From Flavobacterium limnophilum (GTDB lineage Bacteria; Bacteroidota; Bacteroidia; Flavobacteriales; Flavobacteriaceae): a stretch of 64,000 bases of DNA. The position numbers and the translations under genes were made by a program. The notes beneath the pieces are model-generated. The model ran no database searches, was not told the DNA's origin, and saw nothing but the letters and a program-made list of their open reading frames with translations. Below are positions 4,732 through 13,367 of the stretch, one piece after another. The stretch lies in the NCBI RefSeq assembly GCF_027111315.2, contig NZ_CP114289.2, forward strand, positions 2,418,001 to 2,482,000, read 5' to 3'. Every line of letters begins with the position of its first letter. Within the stretch, counting starts at the first letter, position 1.

Positions 4732-7700
4732 ATGTCCATAAAAATAGCCATTTTACATAAAACAACATATAAATTTGACCGAAGCGTCAAATTATTTCCC
4801 CATGTTTTCAGACTTCGTCCAGCGGTGCATTCCAGGACCGCCATAGAGGGCTATTCTTTTAAAATTAGTCCCGAGGATCATTTCATCAATTGGCAACAGG
4901 ATCCTTTTGGAAATTACCAGGCAAGAGTTATTTTTCCCGATAAAATCAAGGAATTAAAAGTCGAGGTCGAAGTCATTGCAAAACTTCAGGTCATCAACCC
5001 TTTTGATTATTTTGTGGAAGAATATGCCCAGAAATATCCCTTTAAATATGACAATCTACTCGAACAGGAATTAGTTCCTTATTTAAAATTAAGCGAAGAA
5101 AGTCCCCTATTCTTGAAATTTATTGAAAAAATAAAGTTAAATGATTCCATAGAAATAAATGATTTTTTGGTTTACCTGAATCAAGAGGTTTACAAAACAC
5201 TTACCTACAATCTACGGATGGAAGCCGGCGTACAAACTCCAGAAGAAACCTTAAGAATAAAAAGTGGCTCCTGCAGGGATTTTGCCTGGCTGTTGATTCA
5301 TGTTTTGCGACACTTTGGTTTAGCGGCGCGGTTTGTTTCCGGCTATATCGTGCAATTGGCACCAGACCTAAAATCGCTTGACGGCCCATCAGGACCAGAG
5401 AATGATTTTACCGATTTGCACGCTTGGGCCGAAGTGTATCTCCCTGGTGCAGGCTGGATTGGATTGGATCCCACCTCCGGACTTTTTGCCAGCGAAGGAC
5501 ATATTCCATTGTGTTGCACGCCTCATTATGAAAGTGCTGCGCCCGTAACGGGTGCCACCGAAAAATGTGAAGTCAGTTTTGATTTCGAAAACAAAGTGAC
5601 CCGTATCCATGAAGACCCGAGAGTAACCAAACCCTATTCCGACAGACAATGGGAAGACATTATGGAAGTTGGAAATGTTGTCGAGAAGGATTTAATCGAA
5701 GGCGATGTCCGCTTGACAATGGGTGGAGAACCGACCTTTATTTCCATCGACGATTTTGAAGGAGCCGAATGGAACACCGCTGCAGACGGGCCATTGAAAC
5801 GAAAATTGGCTTACGATTTGGCGCTTCGTTTAAAACAACGATTTGCCCACGGAGGCTTGCTGCATTTTGGACAAGGAAAATGGTATCCCGGAGAATTATT
5901 TCCACGTTGGCAATATGGGTTGTACTGGAGAAAAGACGGATTTCCCTTGTGGAAAAATGATGCTTTGGTCGCCAAAGAAGGAGAAACCCAATTTACTTTT
6001 CACGATGCCGAAAAATTTGCCGTAGCATTGACCCAATTTTTAGGAATTGACACTAAAAACATATTGCCCACCTACGAAGACCCTATTTATTGGGCACTGG
6101 AGGAAGGCAAACTTCCAGTGAATTTAGACCCATTGAAAGTGAATTTGAAAGATTCCATTGAACGCCATAATCTGGCCAAGGTTTTAGAAAAAGGCTTGAA
6201 TAATCCATCAGGATTTGTTTTGCCAATTCGAAAAGACCACAGCCAGGATAATTGGGAAAGTTGTGCTTGGGAATTTAGAAGAGGAAATTGCTTTTTAATT
6301 CCCGGGAATTCTCCAATCGGTTTGCGGTTGCCATTGGATTCGCTTCCAAAGACTTCCAAAAACAAGAGAAAAACAGTTGTTGACAGGAGTTTATTTGAAG
6401 ATTTACCTGCTTTAGGAGATTACACCGAAAAAATAAACAATCGTTTTGGAACTATTTCAAAGATTTTTGAAGCCGTCAAAAAAGTCGTATCCAAAAAAGA
6501 AAGTAGAAAGGAAGAAGACTCCTTATTATATGAAGTAGACACTTTCATTACGGCAATGTGCGTACAAGAACGCGATGGAATGTTGTACGTTTTTCTGCCG
6601 CCAACCGATTATTTGGAAGACTATATAGACTTAATCACTTCGATAGAAATTACTGCCGAAAAATTGCAAATGCCAGTACGAATTGAAGGCTATCAACCAA
6701 AAACGGATTACAGAGTCGAGAAAATGATGGTTACTCCTGATCCTGGCGTAATTGAAGTGAATGTGCATCCAGCCAAATCTTGGCAAGAAATCGTGGACAA
6801 CACAACGGCACTGTATGAAGAAGCCTTTCTATCTCGTTTAGGCACCGACAAATTTATGGTTGATGGTCGTCATACTGGAACTGGCGGAGGAAATCACGTA
6901 ACATTGGGTGCAGAAAGGCCCGAGGACAGTCCGCTGTTGCGAAGACCTGATTTGTTGCGAAGCCTGATTACCTATTGGCAACACCATCCCGTTTTAAGCT
7001 ACCTTTTTGCCGGGCCTTTTATTGGACCAACGAGTCAGGCACCACGTATTGACGAAGGTCGTGATGAGCGTCTCTATGAAATGGAAATTGCTTTTGACCA
7101 AATCCCGAAAGATAAAGAAGTTCCCTTTTGGATGGTGGACAGAATTTTCAGAAACCTATTGACCGACATTACCGGAAATACGCACCGTACCGAGTTTTGC
7201 ATCGACAAATTGTACTCTCCAGATTCCTCGACAGGACGTTTGGGAATATTGGAATTAAGGGCTTTTGACATGCCGCCCCACAAACACATGAACCTGGTTC
7301 AAAACCTATTGGTTCGTTCCTTGGTCGCCAAATTCTGGAAAAACCCTTACGAAAAAAAATTGATTCGTTGGGGAACTGAACTGCATGACAAGTTTTTGTT
7401 GCCCCATTTTGCCTATCTGGACATGATTGACGTGGTCAACGATTTAAAAGATGCCGGATATAATTTCGACATTTCATGGTTTGACCCTTTCTTCGAATTT
7501 AGATATCCCCATCATGGCAACGTGACTATTGACAATATTCAATTGGAAATTAGATTGGGTATCGAACCTTGGCACGTACTTGGCGAAGAACTCTCCAGCT
7601 CCGGAACCTCTCGATTTGTAGATTCTTCATTGGAACGTTTGCAAGTAAAAGTATCTGGAATTGTACCCGATCGTCATATTTTATTATGCAAAGGATGCCG

Positions 7701-8148
7701 AATCCCATTAAGAAGCACCGGAACCAAAGGAGAATATGTGGCAGGAATACGTTACAAATCATGGAATCCACCGTCCGCCTTGCATCCCAATATTGGAATT
7801 GACGTACCGCTTGTTTTTGATTTGGTAGATACTTGGAACAATAAAGTAATTGGTGGTTGCACCTATTTTGTCACGCATCCCGGCGGAAGAAGTTTTGACA
7901 GTTTCCCCGTGAACAGCCTTGAAGCGGAATCCAGAAAAATAAGCCGCTTTTGGGATTTTGGCCACACCCCTTCTTCTGCACTCGAGGATGTGGAAAAAGA
8001 GAAAGAAATGGTTGCCAACAATACTGCAACCTCCCGTTTTTTGGTAGAATCCAAATCAGAACTAAGACTTGACACGCCCATAGAACTTATTAACCCTGAG
8101 TACCCTTACACCCTAGATTTAAGACATTATTGGAAAGCAAAAGAATAA
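4732..8148 (+). CDS. Transglutaminase-DUF2126 fusion protein
   Basis: A 1138-residue protein. Residues about 1-100 match the bacterial transglutaminase N-terminal domain. The transglutaminase-like core follows with a complete triad: Cys181 in GSCRDFAWLL, His230 in DLHAWAEVYL and Asp246 in GLDPTSG. From about residue 325 (RLTMGGEPTF) to about 1110 is DUF2126, including the glycine-rich GTGGGNH at 716-722. From published genomic analysis of amidoligases (Iyer and colleagues), DUF2126 proteins are, as I recall, predicted glutamine-synthetase-like COOH-NH2 ligases. The protein would then combine peptide-bond making and breaking in one chain. There is no signal peptide, so it is cytoplasmic. It is the first gene of a cluster continuing with the ATP-grasp/alpha-E protein 76 bp downstream. 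Substrate unknown. Confidence 0.88.
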   Translation: MSIKIAILHKTTYKFDRSVKLFPHVFRLRPAVHSRTAIEGYSFKISPEDHFINWQQDPFGNYQARVIFPDKIKELKVEVEVIAKLQVINPFDYFVEEYAQKYPFKYDNLLEQELVPYLKLSEESPLFLKFIEKIKLNDSIEINDFLVYLNQEVYKTLTYNLRMEAGVQTPEETLRIKSGSCRDFAWLLIHVLRHFGLAARFVSGYIVQLAPDLKSLDGPSGPENDFTDLHAWAEVYLPGAGWIGLDPTSGLFASEGHIPLCCTPHYESAAPVTGATEKCEVSFDFENKVTRIHEDPRVTKPYSDRQWEDIMEVGNVVEKDLIEGDVRLTMGGEPTFISIDDFEGAEWNTAADGPLKRKLAYDLALRLKQRFAHGGLLHFGQGKWYPGELFPRWQYGLYWRKDGFPLWKNDALVAKEGETQFTFHDAEKFAVALTQFLGIDTKNILPTYEDPIYWALEEGKLPVNLDPLKVNLKDSIERHNLAKVLEKGLNNPSGFVLPIRKDHSQDNWESCAWEFRRGNCFLIPGNSPIGLRLPLDSLPKTSKNKRKTVVDRSLFEDLPALGDYTEKINNRFGTISKIFEAVKKVVSKKESRKEEDSLLYEVDTFITAMCVQERDGMLYVFLPPTDYLEDYIDLITSIEITAEKLQMPVRIEGYQPKTDYRVEKMMVTPDPGVIEVNVHPAKSWQEIVDNTTALYEEAFLSRLGTDKFMVDGRHTGTGGGNHVTLGAERPEDSPLLRRPDLLRSLITYWQHHPVLSYLFAGPFIGPTSQAPRIDEGRDERLYEMEIAFDQIPKDKEVPFWMVDRIFRNLLTDITGNTHRTEFCIDKLYSPDSSTGRLGILELRAFDMPPHKHMNLVQNLLVRSLVAKFWKNPYEKKLIRWGTELHDKFLLPHFAYLDMIDVVNDLKDAGYNFDISWFDPFFEFRYPHHGNVTIDNIQLEIRLGIEPWHVLGEELSSSGTSRFVDSSLERLQVKVSGIVPDRHILLCKGCRIPLRSTGTKGEYVAGIRYKSWNPPSALHPNIGIDVPLVFDLVDTWNNKVIGGCTYFVTHPGGRSFDSFPVNSLEAESRKISRFWDFGHTPSSALEDVEKEKEMVANNTATSRFLVESKSELRLDTPIELINPEYPYTLDLRHYWKAKE

Positions 8149-8224
8149 AATAATTAACATTGTTGTTTATTTTAAAAACCTTATTTTGCAAGGCTATAAA
8201 ACGCAATTCACTCATAATTAACAA

Positions 8225-10816
8225 ATGATTCAAGATATTTCATTGGGACTACTCCAAACTTATAAAGAAAAAATCAATTCTTACGACGAAGTATTGGACA
8301 AAAACGGTCAGGTAAAGCCGTATTGGAAAGGACTTTTTGCTACTTTGGAATCTATTGGTATCGAAGAATTGGAATTGCGCAATGAAGAAATTGTAAAAAA
8401 ATTAAGGGAAAACGGGGTTACCTATAATGTTTACGATTCCAATAAAGAGTCGAATAGGGCCTGGAAACTGGATCCCATTCCGTTTCTGATTCACGAATCG
8501 GAATGGAAATCCATCGAAAAAGGATTGAAACAAAGAGCGCATTTGCTGGATTTGATTTTAAAAGACCTTTACGGCCCCCAATCGTTGATTAAAAATGCCA
8601 TTATTCCTGCCGAATTGGTTTTTGACAACTCTGGTTTTCTCTTGCCTTGTTTTGACATTAGACAAAAACACGACAAACAATTGCTGAATTATGCGGTTGA
8701 TTTAGCAAGAGGTCCCGACGGAAAAATGTGGCTTTTGGACAACCGAACCCAAGCTCCTTCCGGTGCAGGATATGCCCTCGAAAACAGGATTGTAATGAGC
8801 AAGGTAATTCCCGAACTCAATACCAAAACGTATAGAAGCAGGCTTTCTCCCTACTTTAGCCAATTGCAGCAAACCGTTGACACGTTGGGAAATAATTCTA
8901 ATGAAAATCCAAACGTGGTTTTCTTGACTCCCGGTCCCGGAAACGAAACTTATTTTGAACACGTTTACCTTTCGTCCTATTTGGGTTATACTTTAGTCCA
9001 AGGAAACGATTTGTTGGTGCGGGATGGTTTTGTGTGGCTAAAATCGATTGACCAACTCGAACGGGTTGACGTCATCATCAAACGATTGGACGACGAATGG
9101 TGCGACCCACTGGAATTGCGAAGAGATTCTTTGCTGGGAATTCCCGGTTTGTTGCAAGTGATTCGTTTGGGAAATGTTGCCGTCATGAATCCTCCCGGAA
9201 CCAGTGTTTTGGAAAATTATGGATTGATGGCCTTTATGCAAAATGCCTGCAAATTTCTACTCAAAGAACCCTTGTTGATGCCTTCGGTAGCCACTTGGTG
9301 GTGCGGACAAACCAAGGAATTGAACTTTGTTTTGGCCAATTTGCCCAAATTAATCATTAAAAAAACCAATCGAAAACAAGGTTTTAGATCTATTTACGGA
9401 CGCTTGTTGAACATAGAACAACTGGAAGATTTAAAAAAACTGATTCTAAAAAGTCCCAAAGATTTCGTCGCCCAAGAAGAAGTGAGTTTATCCACCACTC
9501 CATCCTTTATTAACGGCTCGATTGAGCCAAGATATGCCGCCATACGTGCCTTTCTAATAGCCGAAGGCGATAACTACAAAGTAATGCAGGGCGGTTTAAC
9601 GAGAAGCTCAGCAGTAAAAGACAAGTTCGAAATTTCGAACCAATTGGGAGGAATTTCAAAAGATACTTGGGTAATAACCGATTCGCCAATTGAATACCAA
9701 GAAAAATCGGTTGAACGAAAAAACACCAACAACCAACTCAATAATTCGTTGACCAGCCGCAATGCCGAAAACTTGTTTTGGTTGGGTCGTTTGTGCGAAA
9801 GAACAATGGCGTTGCGTAGTTTTCTAAAAATAATTCTCAGTAGATTAAACGAAAATGTAACCAAACACGGCAATAAACAACCCGAATTTTTGGTTGTTTT
9901 ATTAAAATCCTTGACGCATCTTACGCAAACTTATCCCGGATTTGTTGGAAAAGAGGCTAAAGATGGGGAAGAATTTGACAACGAAGCCATTTTCGAAAAC
10001 CCCATTGCCGAATTGCTGCTTTTGATTAATGACTCTGGAAAAGCCGGTTCCGTAGTTTATAATTTGCAATCGCTGCTCAACACCATTAACCAAGTGAGCG
10101 AAAAGTGGAATCACGACACCCGACGCATCATTAATTTAGTGGAAGACAGCCTTTTTGTCCTTAAAAAAACCAATACCAACAACATCAATTACGTGAACCA
10201 TTCTTTGGATAAATTGCACATTCGCCTTTTCTCTTTTTATGGAAACATATACGAAACCTTGCCTCGCGACAATGGTTTTTATTTATTGGAAACCGGGAAA
10301 AACGTGGAGCGCATTTTGTCCTTGATTTCGGTTTTTCGTTCCACTTTCAATTTCAAAAAAATCGAGGAAGAAGAAGCTGTTTTGATGGAAGCCATCCTGG
10401 AAAACCACCATTTATTGGCACAATATCGAAACATTTACAAATCGCATTTGAGTTTGAAGGCCGTCATCAATATGGTCTTTTTAGAAAAAAACTTGCCTTA
10501 CACGCTTACCTATTTGTTGGACACGCTTTCGTATTATCTTTCCAAATTACCCAAATCCAATGAGCCACATCGATTGAGCATTGCCGAGAAATCCGCTTTG
10601 GAAGCCAGCACGATTGTCAAATTAATCGATGCAGAAAGTCTGGTAATTGTGGATTCAACAACACAATTTCGCCCTGAATTAGACGAAACACTCTCCAAGG
10701 TTTTTGAACTGATTTGCAACGTTTCCAACAATTTATCGAGTTTGTATTTCAACCATTCCGTTATACAACATTCTGTATTAGAAAACCTTGAAAATATCGA
10801 TAGCGATGAAATATAA
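8225..10816 (+). CDS. Circularly permuted ATP-grasp / alpha-E domain fusion protein
   Basis: An 863-residue fusion of two modules that are often separate genes. The first half, about residues 80-480, is a circularly permuted ATP-grasp type 2 domain, with VDLARGPDGKMWLLDNRTQAPSG and VAVMNPPGTSVLENYGLMAF, a family expected to form amide bonds using ATP. The second half, from about 515 (SRNAENLFWLGRLCERT) to about 830, is the all-helical alpha-E domain. Their company with transglutaminases is a known association, predicted to make or attach a peptide tag. The stop at 10814-10816 overlaps the next gene's start by 11 bases, which implies translational coupling. Confidence 0.88.
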   Translation: MIQDISLGLLQTYKEKINSYDEVLDKNGQVKPYWKGLFATLESIGIEELELRNEEIVKKLRENGVTYNVYDSNKESNRAWKLDPIPFLIHESEWKSIEKGLKQRAHLLDLILKDLYGPQSLIKNAIIPAELVFDNSGFLLPCFDIRQKHDKQLLNYAVDLARGPDGKMWLLDNRTQAPSGAGYALENRIVMSKVIPELNTKTYRSRLSPYFSQLQQTVDTLGNNSNENPNVVFLTPGPGNETYFEHVYLSSYLGYTLVQGNDLLVRDGFVWLKSIDQLERVDVIIKRLDDEWCDPLELRRDSLLGIPGLLQVIRLGNVAVMNPPGTSVLENYGLMAFMQNACKFLLKEPLLMPSVATWWCGQTKELNFVLANLPKLIIKKTNRKQGFRSIYGRLLNIEQLEDLKKLILKSPKDFVAQEEVSLSTTPSFINGSIEPRYAAIRAFLIAEGDNYKVMQGGLTRSSAVKDKFEISNQLGGISKDTWVITDSPIEYQEKSVERKNTNNQLNNSLTSRNAENLFWLGRLCERTMALRSFLKIILSRLNENVTKHGNKQPEFLVVLLKSLTHLTQTYPGFVGKEAKDGEEFDNEAIFENPIAELLLLINDSGKAGSVVYNLQSLLNTINQVSEKWNHDTRRIINLVEDSLFVLKKTNTNNINYVNHSLDKLHIRLFSFYGNIYETLPRDNGFYLLETGKNVERILSLISVFRSTFNFKKIEEEEAVLMEAILENHHLLAQYRNIYKSHLSLKAVINMVFLEKNLPYTLTYLLDTLSYYLSKLPKSNEPHRLSIAEKSALEASTIVKLIDAESLVIVDSTTQFRPELDETLSKVFELICNVSNNLSSLYFNHSVIQHSVLENLENIDSDEI

Positions 10817-11675
10817 ACTAAAACATAAAACGCTCTATACTTACGTGAACGAGGTGTACAATTACCAAAGTATTTTGTGTCTTCAACCACGGAATTCGGC
10901 CAAACAAATTTGCAAAAATTTCAAGATCGAAATTGAGCCAAAACCATCCAAAATATATTCCCGCACGGATTATTTTGGAAACATCCAGCATTATTTTTCG
11001 CTTCACGAATCGCATAAATCACTAAAAGTTATCGTTTCCAGCGAGATTGAAGTATTGAATAATGTCGTTCAGCCATTGAATCCAATAAGTTGCGCGGAAG
11101 CCCGATTAAAATTTCAAACCGATCTTCAATTAAAAACCGAAGTTTTGCAATACCAATTGCCCAGCCAATTCATTAGTTGGGATGAAGAAATTAAAGCTTT
11201 TGCCGAAACTTGTCTAAAACCCGATGCCTCACTTTTTGAAGCTGTTTTGGATTTAATCAAAAAAATATATACCGAATTCCAATTCAAATCCGGTGCTACC
11301 AGCATCAATACGCCTTTAAAAACGGTGCTCAAAGAGAGAAAAGGCGTTTGCCAAGATTTCTCCCATTTGGCAATTGCCAGTTTGCGCAGTGTGGGAATTC
11401 CGGCAAAATATGTCAGCGGTTATATCGAAACCTTGCCGCCAAAAGGCAAAATAAAACTGGAAGGTTCCGATGCTTCCCACGCCTGGATTTCGGTTTATAT
11501 TCCAGAAATGGGTTGGTGCGAATTTGATCCCACCAACAACATGATTCCGCAACAACACCATATTGTAACGGCTTACGGTAGAGATTTTGCCGATGTGTCG
11601 CCACTAAAAGGAATTATTTTCAGTTCCGGCGATCATAAAGTGAAAGTGGAGGTGGATGTTATACCTTTGGGGTAG
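10806..11675 (+). CDS. Transglutaminase-like cysteine protease family protein
   Basis: A 289-residue transglutaminase-family protein. The bacterial N-terminal domain is at about residues 1-85 (KYKLKHKTLYTY at the start). The catalytic core has Cys182 in KGVCQDFSHL, His225 in ASHAWISVY and Asp241 in EFDPTNN, so the triad is complete. I chose the ATG at 10806 over an upstream TTG at 10788 because MKYKLKHKT is where family homology begins. It overlaps the ATP-grasp/alpha-E gene by 11 bp. In related systems these proteins are thought to act as peptidases or amidases on the ligated product. No signal peptide. Confidence 0.88.
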   Translation: MKYKLKHKTLYTYVNEVYNYQSILCLQPRNSAKQICKNFKIEIEPKPSKIYSRTDYFGNIQHYFSLHESHKSLKVIVSSEIEVLNNVVQPLNPISCAEARLKFQTDLQLKTEVLQYQLPSQFISWDEEIKAFAETCLKPDASLFEAVLDLIKKIYTEFQFKSGATSINTPLKTVLKERKGVCQDFSHLAIASLRSVGIPAKYVSGYIETLPPKGKIKLEGSDASHAWISVYIPEMGWCEFDPTNNMIPQQHHIVTAYGRDFADVSPLKGIIFSSGDHKVKVEVDVIPLG

Positions 11676-11738
11676 TTTTTTTACACAGATTTCACAGATT
11701 TTCACGGATTGAATAAAAATAAAATTAGTTTCAGAACT

Positions 11739-11768
11739 TTGTGAAAGTTATCCAATTGACTAACTTTG
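11739..11768 (+). promoter_or_regulatory. Bacteroidetes-type promoter of the HigBA module
   Basis: TTG at 11739-11741 and TAACTTTG at 11761-11768 are separated by 19 bp, matching the -33/-7 consensus TTG-N19-TAnnTTTG. The higB ATG begins at 11773, only 5 bases after the -7 box, so the transcript would begin at or next to the start codon and be leaderless or nearly so. Confidence 0.65.
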
Positions 11769-11772
11769 TAAA

Positions 11773-12126
11773 ATGAACCAGAAATTTATAAGAGAAGTAG
11801 TTTATTACGAGGATTATTATCTTGACTTTTTTAACGCTCAAAAAGAAGACGTTAAGAAAAAATTTAACTGGACATTACAATTAATTTCAACCCAAGAAAG
11901 AATTCCCGAAAAGTTTTTCAAACATTTGACTGGTTCTGACGGAATATTTGAAGTTCGAGTTGAAGTTGGTTCAGACATCTTTAGAGTTTTTAGTTTTTTT
12001 GACAAAGGAAAAATTGTTGTTTTGGTAAACGGATTTCAAAAGAAAACTCAAAAAACACCCAAATCTGAAATCAAAATGGCTGAAAAGCTAAAAGCAGAAT
12101 ATTTAGAACATAAATATAAAAAGTAA
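11773..12126 (+). CDS. higB: RelE/HigB-type toxin (phage-derived Gp49-like family)
   Basis: A 117-residue small basic protein with the Gp49-like/HigB pattern: YYEDYYLDFFNAQKEDVKKKF near the N-terminus, FFKHLTGSDGIFEVRVEVGSDIFRVF in the middle, then VVLVNGFQKKTQKTP and a lysine-rich C-terminal helix. Proteins of this family are ribosome-dependent mRNA interferases. It is followed 5 bp later by an XRE-type antitoxin, the reverse (toxin-first) order that is usual for higBA. Expression should come from the promoter just upstream. The pair sits inside the transglutaminase/ATP-grasp cluster and looks inserted. Confidence 0.88.
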   Translation: MNQKFIREVVYYEDYYLDFFNAQKEDVKKKFNWTLQLISTQERIPEKFFKHLTGSDGIFEVRVEVGSDIFRVFSFFDKGKIVVLVNGFQKKTQKTPKSEIKMAEKLKAEYLEHKYKK

Positions 12127-12131
12127 CAATC

Positions 12132-12437
12132 ATGAAAGCAGAAAACAAAAAAATAACATCATTTTCTGAACATTTAGATGCTCAATTTGGAAAAATCGGG
12201 ACAGAGCCCCGTGAAAAATACGAAGAAGAATATGAGACCTTTGAACTTGGCGTTATGCTACAAGAAATGCGAAAAGAACGAGGAATGACCCAAGAACAAT
12301 TAGCATTGAAATGTGGCACAACCAAATCTTATATTTCTAAAATTGAAAATAACACCAGCGACATTAGACTTTCGACACTGATGAGAATCATTAGACAAGG
12401 CTTAGGCGGACACTTAAAATTGAGTTTAACCGAATAA
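12132..12437 (+). CDS. higA: HigA-type XRE family antitoxin
   Basis: A 101-residue protein with an acidic N-terminal extension and a helix-turn-helix at about residues 40-90 (LQEMRKERGMTQEQLALKCG, then SYISKIENNTSDIRLSTLMRII), the classic Cro/CI fold of HigA antitoxins, which neutralise the toxin and repress the operon. It starts 5 bp after higB. Its TAA at 12435-12437 is in the same reading frame as the downstream protein-glutaminase-like gene, whose coding-like sequence begins immediately after it, so this stop marks the downstream boundary of the inserted module. Confidence 0.88.
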   Translation: MKAENKKITSFSEHLDAQFGKIGTEPREKYEEEYETFELGVMLQEMRKERGMTQEQLALKCGTTKSYISKIENNTSDIRLSTLMRIIRQGLGGHLKLSLTE

Positions 12438-12536
12438 ATAGTTATTCGCACACACTTTAAAAACACCACCATCAAAAAGCACCCACTTTTAACGCCAAGA
12501 AAAGCATCTATCGTAGACCTAAACACGGTAAACGCT

Positions 12537-13367
12537 TTGTTTGCGGAAATTATGCAATCTGGAATTCCTTTTGGATATCAACAGGCCAATTGCCATAATA
12601 TTTCGCATTACACCAGTTTGTTGTTGGAGTCTAAAGGCTATCAATGTGCCAAAATTTGGGCGTTTGCACCGGTGGTTTATTCCACTTCCAGCTATAAATT
12701 AATCCGGATTCCCGATAAAAACAACCTATCGCCTGGCGGAAAAATCGATTGGGGTTATCATGTTGCACCCATTCTTCAAGTTCGGATTGGGAATAAAGTG
12801 CGAAAAATGGCCATTGACCCAGGATTGTTCAAAACTCCCGTGCGTTATAGAACTTGGTTGGCCAAACTCAAAACCCGAAAATTGATTTATTTAATCATGG
12901 ATTCGGACTGGTATTTATTTAATTCCTCAATGCTTACCAATTCGGAGCTTCAGGCTAATTCTGAGGAATCATCAAATGCAAATCCAACAAATATCAAATT
13001 GCCCGATTGGTTTTCGGACAAACACATCACGGACTTTTTCAGATACGAAGAAGAGGCATTAGAGCAACATTGGATAGAAAAAGGATTGGCCGTAAACGAA
13101 ACCGCTTTGGCTTTTTACGATGCCGAAATCAAGCCCATTTTGCATTCCAAACAACACCAAGATTTAGTCACCGATTATAAAATGTTGGTGGGAAATGTAT
13201 TCCATTTTGAAACCATTTTCAGGGACAATAATTGGAATCCTGAAATGAATGACGAATTTCAATTGAAACATCAAGAAATCATCGCCAAATACCGGGAAAT
13301 CTACTTTTCGAATCTACAAAAATGGCAAGAATCTCTGGCTTCGTTAAACGAAATCATCAAGAAATAA
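12537..13367 (+). CDS. Protein-glutaminase-like Cys-His-Asp protein, apparently missing its start
   Basis: The 276 residues from a TTG at 12537 resemble the protein-glutaminase (Gln_deamidase_2) fold. Counting from that TTG, Cys19 lies in QANCHNISHY, His75 in WGYHVAPIL and Asp94 in AIDPGLF, in the correct order and context for the papain-like triad that deamidates glutamine side chains. Coding-like sequence continues upstream of the TTG without a stop to 12438, where it meets the higA stop in the same frame, and holds no ATG, GTG or TTG earlier than 12537. The original N-terminus therefore seems to have been removed when HigBA inserted. There is no signal peptide, unlike secreted Chryseobacterium protein-glutaminase. 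It may be silent, or made from the TTG or by read-through. Confidence 0.65.
   Translation: MFAEIMQSGIPFGYQQANCHNISHYTSLLLESKGYQCAKIWAFAPVVYSTSSYKLIRIPDKNNLSPGGKIDWGYHVAPILQVRIGNKVRKMAIDPGLFKTPVRYRTWLAKLKTRKLIYLIMDSDWYLFNSSMLTNSELQANSEESSNANPTNIKLPDWFSDKHITDFFRYEEEALEQHWIEKGLAVNETALAFYDAEIKPILHSKQHQDLVTDYKMLVGNVFHFETIFRDNNWNPEMNDEFQLKHQEIIAKYREIYFSNLQKWQESLASLNEIIKK

What the first reader, a model, noticed from the sequence alone, without database searches (positions are those of the whole stretch)
4732..13367. Peptide-tag ligase/transglutaminase cluster with a protein-glutaminase-like partner
Three adjacent genes encode a transglutaminase-DUF2126 fusion, a circularly permuted ATP-grasp/alpha-E fusion and another transglutaminase; a fourth gene, beyond an inserted HigBA module, encodes a protein-glutaminase-like Cys-His-Asp protein. 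The first three are a known predicted amide-ligation system of unknown product. The glutaminase-like protein as a partner is new to me and would add a deamidation or hydrolysis step acting on Gln, which suits a system with a transglutaminase fold.
Basis: partly seen in the sequence, partly recalled or inferred. Interest (0 to 1): 0.75.

Follow-up and report, generated by a model that had tools for sequence, protein, structure and literature searches.

The report
Amide-ligase operon with glutaminase partner
In some Flavobacterium species an uncharacterised four-enzyme gene cluster that probably builds and edits amide bonds on a peptide or protein carries, as a conserved member, a cell-internal relative of protein-glutaminase whose gene seems to start at an unusual codon.

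Summary

GlnD seems to begin 66 bases earlier, at 12471, with ATC: ATC/ATT sits at this site in 19 of 22 orthologues, and four have no canonical start before the catalytic Cys. And all 20 GlnD-operon genomes tested also have a stand-alone ATP-grasp system. Anbu, the partner hydrolase elsewhere, was found in 0 of 249 genomes. DUF2126 varies out of step with the other three genes.

The parts
4732..8148 (+). Transglutaminase-like domain (Pfam matches within res. 6-247) fused to DUF2126, predicted GS-fold amidoligase (res. 277-1131)
   Evidence: Pfam; TG Cys, His and Asp conserved in 19 of 20 aligned rows, the 20th being a gap; model of the DUF2126 part retrieves glutamine synthetases, none significantly
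8225..10816 (+). Circularly permuted ATP-grasp fused to Alpha-E
   Evidence: Pfam; ATP-grasp part matches solved structure 3n6x at E 2.4e-80
10806..11675 (+). Second transglutaminase-like protein (ORF lister start TTG 10788; ATG at 10806 likelier)
   Evidence: Pfam; Cys, His and Asp motifs invariant in 24 of 24 rows
11773..12126 (+). Gp49/RelE-like toxin of an inserted toxin-antitoxin pair
   Evidence: PF05973; neither gene of the pair has a tblastn hit in loci L019-L038 or L039-L071; TG-to-GlnD gap 795 nt here, 7-206 nt in the 18 other operon loci measured
12132..12437 (+). HTH antitoxin of the inserted pair
   Evidence: PF01381
12471..12473 (+). Proposed non-canonical start codon ATC of GlnD
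   Evidence: ATC/ATT four or five codons before PLL in 19 of 22 rows; the only canonical codon 3-8 codons before PLL is a GTG in L031
12471..13367 (+). GlnD: protein-glutaminase-like Cys-His-Asp protein, probably cytoplasmic, with an extra C-terminal helix

Best explanation
The four genes form one intracellular amide-chemistry module. Two ATP-dependent ligase domains (DUF2126, predicted GS fold; ATP-grasp) make amide bonds on a peptide or protein, two transglutaminase-like domains act on amides of the same substrate, and GlnD, a protein-glutaminase without secretion signal or inhibitory pro-domain, hydrolyses a Gln side-chain amide (or the Gln-linked conjugate) of that substrate. I think deamidation that exposes a Glu carboxylate for the ligases is most likely, in the way Dop prepares Pup for PafA (analogy, recalled). 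Shown: gene order, conservation, co-inheritance, predicted fold and catalytic residues of GlnD, intact TG triads. Inferred: substrate, direction of reaction, order of steps, cytoplasmic location. GlnD is translated from an AUC/AUU codon without Shine-Dalgarno-like sequence, which should keep its level low or make it respond to initiation factors (inferred).
Against: No activity is measured for any protein here. DUF2126 systems in a divergent arrangement lack GlnD (G260 L039, G541 L049), so GlnD is accessory. Three orthologues (L034, Cytophaga aurantiaca L036, L038) are not beside the operon. In 7 operon loci (and in stand-alone L036) a promoter-like TAnnTTYG lies 53-66 nt before the GlnD start (chance rate not computed), so co-transcription may not be general. 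Without the four most distant loci the correlations of GlnD fall to 0.55 (ATP-grasp/Alpha-E) and 0.41 (TG), against 0.39 for the stand-alone ATP-grasp. NCBIfam's protein-glutaminase equivalog is not met (31.6 of 250 bits).
Confidence: 0.5

Rival explanations
1. GlnD is the deconjugating or trimming peptidase of the system: it removes the modification and replaces Anbu, the Ntn-hydrolase of the related ATP-grasp/Alpha-E/TG operons elsewhere.
For: GlnD lies at the end of the operon; Anbu shares an operon with the same gene kinds (PMC6376114, PMC5666114, passages). PF00227 is absent from 249 of 249 genus genomes and from all 12 GlnD-operon genomes, while 4 of the other 12 there (G541, G455, G545, G576) have a 252-259 aa weak PF00227 match that I take for Anbu (by size and, in two, by eye). 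A papain-like fold suits amide hydrolysis.
Against: Anbu is missing from the whole 249-genome sample whether or not GlnD is there, so exclusion is not informative inside it; Cytophaga aurantiaca has a stand-alone GlnD and an Anbu-like gene (by eye) behind its ATP-grasp/Alpha-E (L036, L077).
Confidence: 0.25
2. Hitchhiker: GlnD is linked by history only, carried along in a chromosomal segment without functional tie.
For: Divergent DUF2126 systems lack it; three orthologues are unlinked; in some loci it may have its own promoter.
Against: The block stays together in at least six upstream contexts and down to 50% GlnD identity (L037); GlnD co-varies with ATP-grasp and TG beyond a genomic control, while DUF2126 does not (much of the signal comes from four distant loci).
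Confidence: 0.12
3. GlnD serves general nitrogen scavenging by deamidating cytoplasmic proteins or peptides, next to an operon that responds to the same signal.
For: Nitrogen control of the related cluster in B. cenocepacia and the nitrogen-limitation induction of Anbu cited in PMC5666114 and PMC6376114 (passages).
Against: No regulation data for Flavobacterium; an ungated cytoplasmic glutaminase would be costly; a weak start codon argues against bulk expression (both inference).
Confidence: 0.13

Closest known systems
Anbu / ATP-grasp / Alpha-E / transglutaminase operon (Iyer et al. 2009, recalled; described in PMC5666114 and PMC6376114, passages seen)
   Same: ATP-grasp, Alpha-E and transglutaminase-like genes side by side; a predicted amide-ligation system of unknown product; a hydrolase in the operon.
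   Different: ATP-grasp and Alpha-E are fused, a TG-DUF2126 protein is added, PF00227 proteins are absent from the genome and a protein-glutaminase-fold protein ends the operon; the genome has a second, stand-alone ATP-grasp/Alpha-E/TG set as well.
Protein-glutaminase of Chryseobacterium and Flavobacterium (PDB 2zk9, 3a54, 8z3i)
   Same: Fold of the mature domain, Cys-His-Asp triad.
   Different: 21-24% identity in the structural alignments; no room for signal peptide and pro-sequence; extra C-terminal helix; linked to amidoligases; apparent non-AUG start.
Pup system: Dop deamidase and PafA ligase (recalled)
   Same: Deamidation of Gln coupled to a GS-fold ligase would be the same logic.
   Different: Dop is itself a GS-fold enzyme; no Pup-like protein was searched for here; the relation is analogy.
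Burkholderia cenocepacia I35_5080-5083 cluster (PMC5491218, passages seen)
   Same: DUF404/DUF407, DUF403 (Alpha-E), a TG protein and a large TG protein in one cluster.
   Different: No glutaminase gene among the four in the passages seen; under NtrC/sigma54 control.

Membership tests
Protein-glutaminase (EC 3.5.1.44) | Mature protein-glutaminase fold | tested here: met
Protein-glutaminase (EC 3.5.1.44) | Cys-His-Asp catalytic residues | tested here: met
   All three align with Cys, His and Asp of 8z3i in the phmmer alignment (that these are the catalytic ones is recalled); His97 and Asp116 invariant, Cys41 90% or more in 40 rows
Protein-glutaminase (EC 3.5.1.44) | Secretion signal and pro-sequence | tested here: not met
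   Catalytic Cys is residue 41 from the ATC, leaving no room; by eye, kin such as L045 and L046 carry a long N-terminal region with signal-like start. No signal-peptide program was run
Protein-glutaminase (EC 3.5.1.44) | NCBIfam equivalog NF040782 cut-off | tested here: not met
   31.6 bits, cut-off 250
Protein-glutaminase (EC 3.5.1.44) | Deamidates Gln in proteins | not testable with these tools
   needs an assay
Anbu / ATP-grasp / Alpha-E / TG operon | ATP-grasp, Alpha-E and TG genes adjacent | tested here: met
Anbu / ATP-grasp / Alpha-E / TG operon | Anbu present | tested here: not met
   PF00227 in 0 of 249 genomes including G000; the same family search found Anbu-like proteins in G541, G455, G545 and G576
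GS-fold amidoligase (DUF2126) | Glutamine-synthetase fold | tested here: inconclusive
Type II toxin-antitoxin HigBA | HigA equivalog cut-off | tested here: not met
   13.2 of 47.7 bits; Gp49 toxin and HTH are clear by Pfam

The most novel reading that the evidence does not exclude
A bacterial protein-modification cycle distinct from Pup: GlnD deamidates a Gln of a dedicated substrate (or later hydrolyses the bond) so that a GS-fold/ATP-grasp ligase pair can attach, and transglutaminase domains can transfer, an amine or peptide, with the deamidase held at low level by a conserved AUC/AUU start codon in a phylum that (recalled) makes little use of Shine-Dalgarno sites.
Probability: 0.17. Interest if true: 0.85.

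Novelty: new variant of a known kind. Interest (0 to 1): 0.6.

Why it matters
ATP-grasp/Alpha-E/transglutaminase systems occur in several phyla (Alpha-E also rings in Caulobacter and Synechococcus controls; Burkholderia) and no product is known to me. A structural study of Anbu, the usual partner, detected neither peptidase or amidase activity nor interaction with the operon proteins (PMC6376114, passages). A partner with a predictable, easily assayed activity (Gln deamidation) gives a handle on the substrate chemistry. A conserved AUC/AUU start in a Bacteroidota gene would also be an unusual case for start-codon selection without Shine-Dalgarno pairing.

Tried and rejected
Frameshift origin of the GlnD N-terminus: unlikely, since in 13 of 21 loci neither other frame holds a start codon between the preceding stop and the site (8 of 21 do: L025, L027, L030, L032, L034, L035, L036, L047), and TG-to-GlnD gaps vary from 7 to 206 nt. 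RNA hairpin behind the start: a small AAAAG/CTTTT hairpin is in 6 of 21 minimum-energy folds (W, L019, L024, L025, L027, L030), so it is not general; the synonymous conservation there is unexplained. GlnD/Anbu mutual exclusion: uninformative inside the genus sample, since PF00227 is absent throughout. Amidoligase genes near the three stand-alone GlnD genes: no tblastn hit of the window's proteins, none seen by eye. In one search the protein-glutaminase rows align model residues up to 253 only, so the last helix (268-297) is untested.

Literature: 'DUF2126' in no paper of the held library; the term PF09899 in one (PMC11597610, listing only, not opened); Gln_deamidase_2 in one (PMC10318531; the passages seen call it protein glutaminase and report type IVb secretion genes in its neighbourhood, not amidoligases). 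Iyer et al. 2009 (PMC3268129) and Hashizume et al. 2011 (PMC3207460) are not held; they are cited from recall or through other papers. PMC12239564 and PMC12096838 (passages) concern other transglutaminase/ATP-grasp loci and were set aside. Nothing is claimed about the partnership being unpublished beyond searches; preprints and most subscription journals are not in that library.
Full report
OBSERVATION. The genes are as described: TG-DUF2126 (4732-8148), ATP-grasp/Alpha-E (8225-10816), TG (to 11675), a Gp49-type toxin with HTH antitoxin (11773-12437) and a Gln_deamidase_2 protein, here called GlnD. TG catalytic motifs are invariant in 24 of 24 TG rows and their Cys, His and Asp in 19 of 20 TG-DUF2126 rows, the 20th being a gap, unlike the inactive TG domain of RloB (PMC12239564, passages).

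IS GLND A REAL PARTNER? A protein search gave 218 homologues at E <= 1e-3; the best 120, listed, are 62-93% identical, and the source names that give an organism say Flavobacterium. A scan of one genome per species gave 20 GlnD loci. tblastn of the window's proteins found ATP-grasp/Alpha-E and TG directly upstream of GlnD in 17 of the 20; L034, L036 (Cytophaga aurantiaca) and L038 have neither. With the window and two more genomes (L047, L048) this is 20 of 23 distinct loci. DUF2126 lies in front in 17 of the 20 (in L035 a contig end cuts it); in L024 the contig begins inside Alpha-E, in L023 DUF2126 is on another contig of the genome (L065), in L032 a GYF-domain gene is followed by the ATP-grasp gene. 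Of the 20 loci 13 were informative for flanks; their first upstream gene falls into at least six kinds: a GYF-gene kind in six, another shared kind in three, and four single kinds. The shared kinds may reflect common synteny; the single ones speak for the block.

GENUS TALLY. In the same 249 genus genomes: PF18626 in 18, DUF2126 in 13, Alpha-E in 40, of which 14 have the fused ATP-grasp/Alpha-E, PF00227 in 0. PF18626 and the fused gene: 12 of 14 against 6 of 235, Fisher 1.8e-14; PF18626 and DUF2126: 11 of 13 against 7 of 236, 5e-13. These p-values ignore relatedness. The exceptions G179 and G260 have no PF18626; in G260 (L039), as in G541 (L049), DUF2126 is divergent from ATP-grasp/TG; in G179 the genes are on separate contigs. 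The six other PF18626 genomes hold proteins of 35% local identity or less to GlnD (L041-L046), some with signal-like starts by eye. In the phylum sample DUF2126 is in 12 of 345 genomes; GlnD searched as a profile rings in 9 of 345: strongly in G000 and G588, at 6e-23 but on another contig than DUF2126 in G514, and faintly in six.

A SECOND SYSTEM. All 40 Alpha-E genomes have a stand-alone Alpha-E; the 14 with the fused gene are a subset. The window's genome has ATP-grasp, Alpha-E and TG as three genes at L072 7421-10877. All 20 GlnD-operon genomes have the stand-alone ATP-grasp (20 of 20). Within these samples the fused system was seen only beside the stand-alone one.

CO-INHERITANCE. Pairwise protein distances of GlnD correlate with ATP-grasp/Alpha-E (Pearson 0.94) and TG (0.87), with the stand-alone ATP-grasp 0.66 and RecA 0.44 (RecA: 14 genomes only); partial Mantel given the stand-alone ATP-grasp: r 0.88 (0 of 5000 permutations) and 0.78 (2 of 5000), 19 genomes. 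Much of this comes from the four most distant loci; without them GlnD against ATP-grasp/Alpha-E is 0.55, against TG 0.41, against the stand-alone ATP-grasp 0.39. DUF2126 correlates weakly with the other operon genes (0.32-0.38): in the collinear loci its identity to the window is 80-82% or 94-97%, out of step with the neighbours (L031: DUF2126 97%, ATP-grasp 82%, GlnD 62%). I read this as exchange of DUF2126 by recombination; I built no tree.

START CODON. The frame upstream of the first TTG/ATG is conserved protein: in 16 of 21 rows (five distant ones left out) the 26 codons from two before PLL onward have 796 non-synonymous of 3120 pair comparisons (26%), 60 codons of the body 22%, 15 codons upstream of the site 92%. 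An ATC or ATT stands four or five codons before PLL in 19 of 22 rows (for L026); in the distant loci L033-L035 this could be chance, as such codons are common in A+T-rich DNA. Of the three others, L031 has a GTG seven codons before PLL, L036 an ATT at seven, L038 nothing comparable. L022, L024, L027 and L047 have no ATG/GTG/TTG between the upstream stop and the catalytic Cys. Of 120 database homologues, 100 were called with a start downstream of PLL, 8 lack the Cys motif, and 12 start upstream; 7 of these start 4-7 codons before PLL, so canonical starts at the site do occur in some, though one of the 7 (P0011) corresponds to an ATC in its DNA, L025. The segment is part of the fold: residues 11-30 have block pLDDT 93-96 and hold a strand and a helix. 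No Shine-Dalgarno-like word was found 4-20 nt upstream in 21 of 21 loci (L026 measured from a neighbouring codon). A TAnnTTYG promoter-like motif lies 53-66 nt upstream in 8 of 21 (L023, L025, L028, L029, L032, L033, L036, L048); in 8 others the TG stop is 7-28 nt away. Conserved AUU and AUA starts are reported in Staphylococcus aureus, there with extended Shine-Dalgarno motifs (PMC13009471, passages).

MECHANISM. Best reading: Gln side-chain hydrolase acting in the same substrate cycle as two amide ligases and two TG domains. Deamidation before ligation and deconjugation after it cannot be told apart here. Nitrogen limitation is the likeliest signal by analogy with B. cenocepacia, where the DUF404/407, DUF403 and two TG genes are listed at -6.0 to -9.4 in the ntrC mutant (PMC5491218, passages).

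VERDICT. The work adds a start-codon anomaly, a second system and signs of mosaic evolution.

Noticed in passing
window 12471-12473; L019-L035, L047, L048: GlnD appears to start at ATC or ATT without Shine-Dalgarno-like sequence (19 of 22 rows); 100 of 120 listed database homologues were called with a later start.
   Followed up: yes
window 4732-8148 and loci L019-L048: DUF2126 identities to the window are 80-82% or 94-97% in collinear loci and discordant with the rest of the operon, pointing to exchange of this gene alone.
   Followed up: partly
L072 7421-10877 (G000:C1, outside the window): The same genome has a second, stand-alone ATP-grasp, Alpha-E, TG set; the fused system was seen only in genomes with a stand-alone Alpha-E (14 of 14 in the genus sample).
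   Followed up: partly
window 12486-12494 and orthologues: Leu-Leu-Thr codons just after the GlnD start are nearly invariant at synonymous sites (CTT 16 of 16, TTA 15 of 16, ACG 13 of 14 Thr), which suggests an RNA-level constraint.
   Followed up: partly
L032 / L082: GYF gene followed by ATP-grasp/Alpha-E with DUF2126 missing; the public record is titled Klebsiella pneumoniae although the genome is placed in the window's genus (G393), so the bin looks mislabelled.
   Followed up: no
L034 581-1630 and 2088-2954: A GlnD outside the operon stands next to a gene that looks like a glutaminyl-peptide cyclotransferase (by eye, no family search).
   Followed up: no
L030 101-3513; L037 10001-10897: DUF2126 in L030 is split by a frame change and GlnD in L037 has an in-frame stop: decay or assembly error.
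   Followed up: no
window 11761-11768: TAACTTTG just upstream of the toxin gene looks like a Bacteroidota promoter (motif recalled) belonging to the inserted toxin-antitoxin pair.
   Followed up: no
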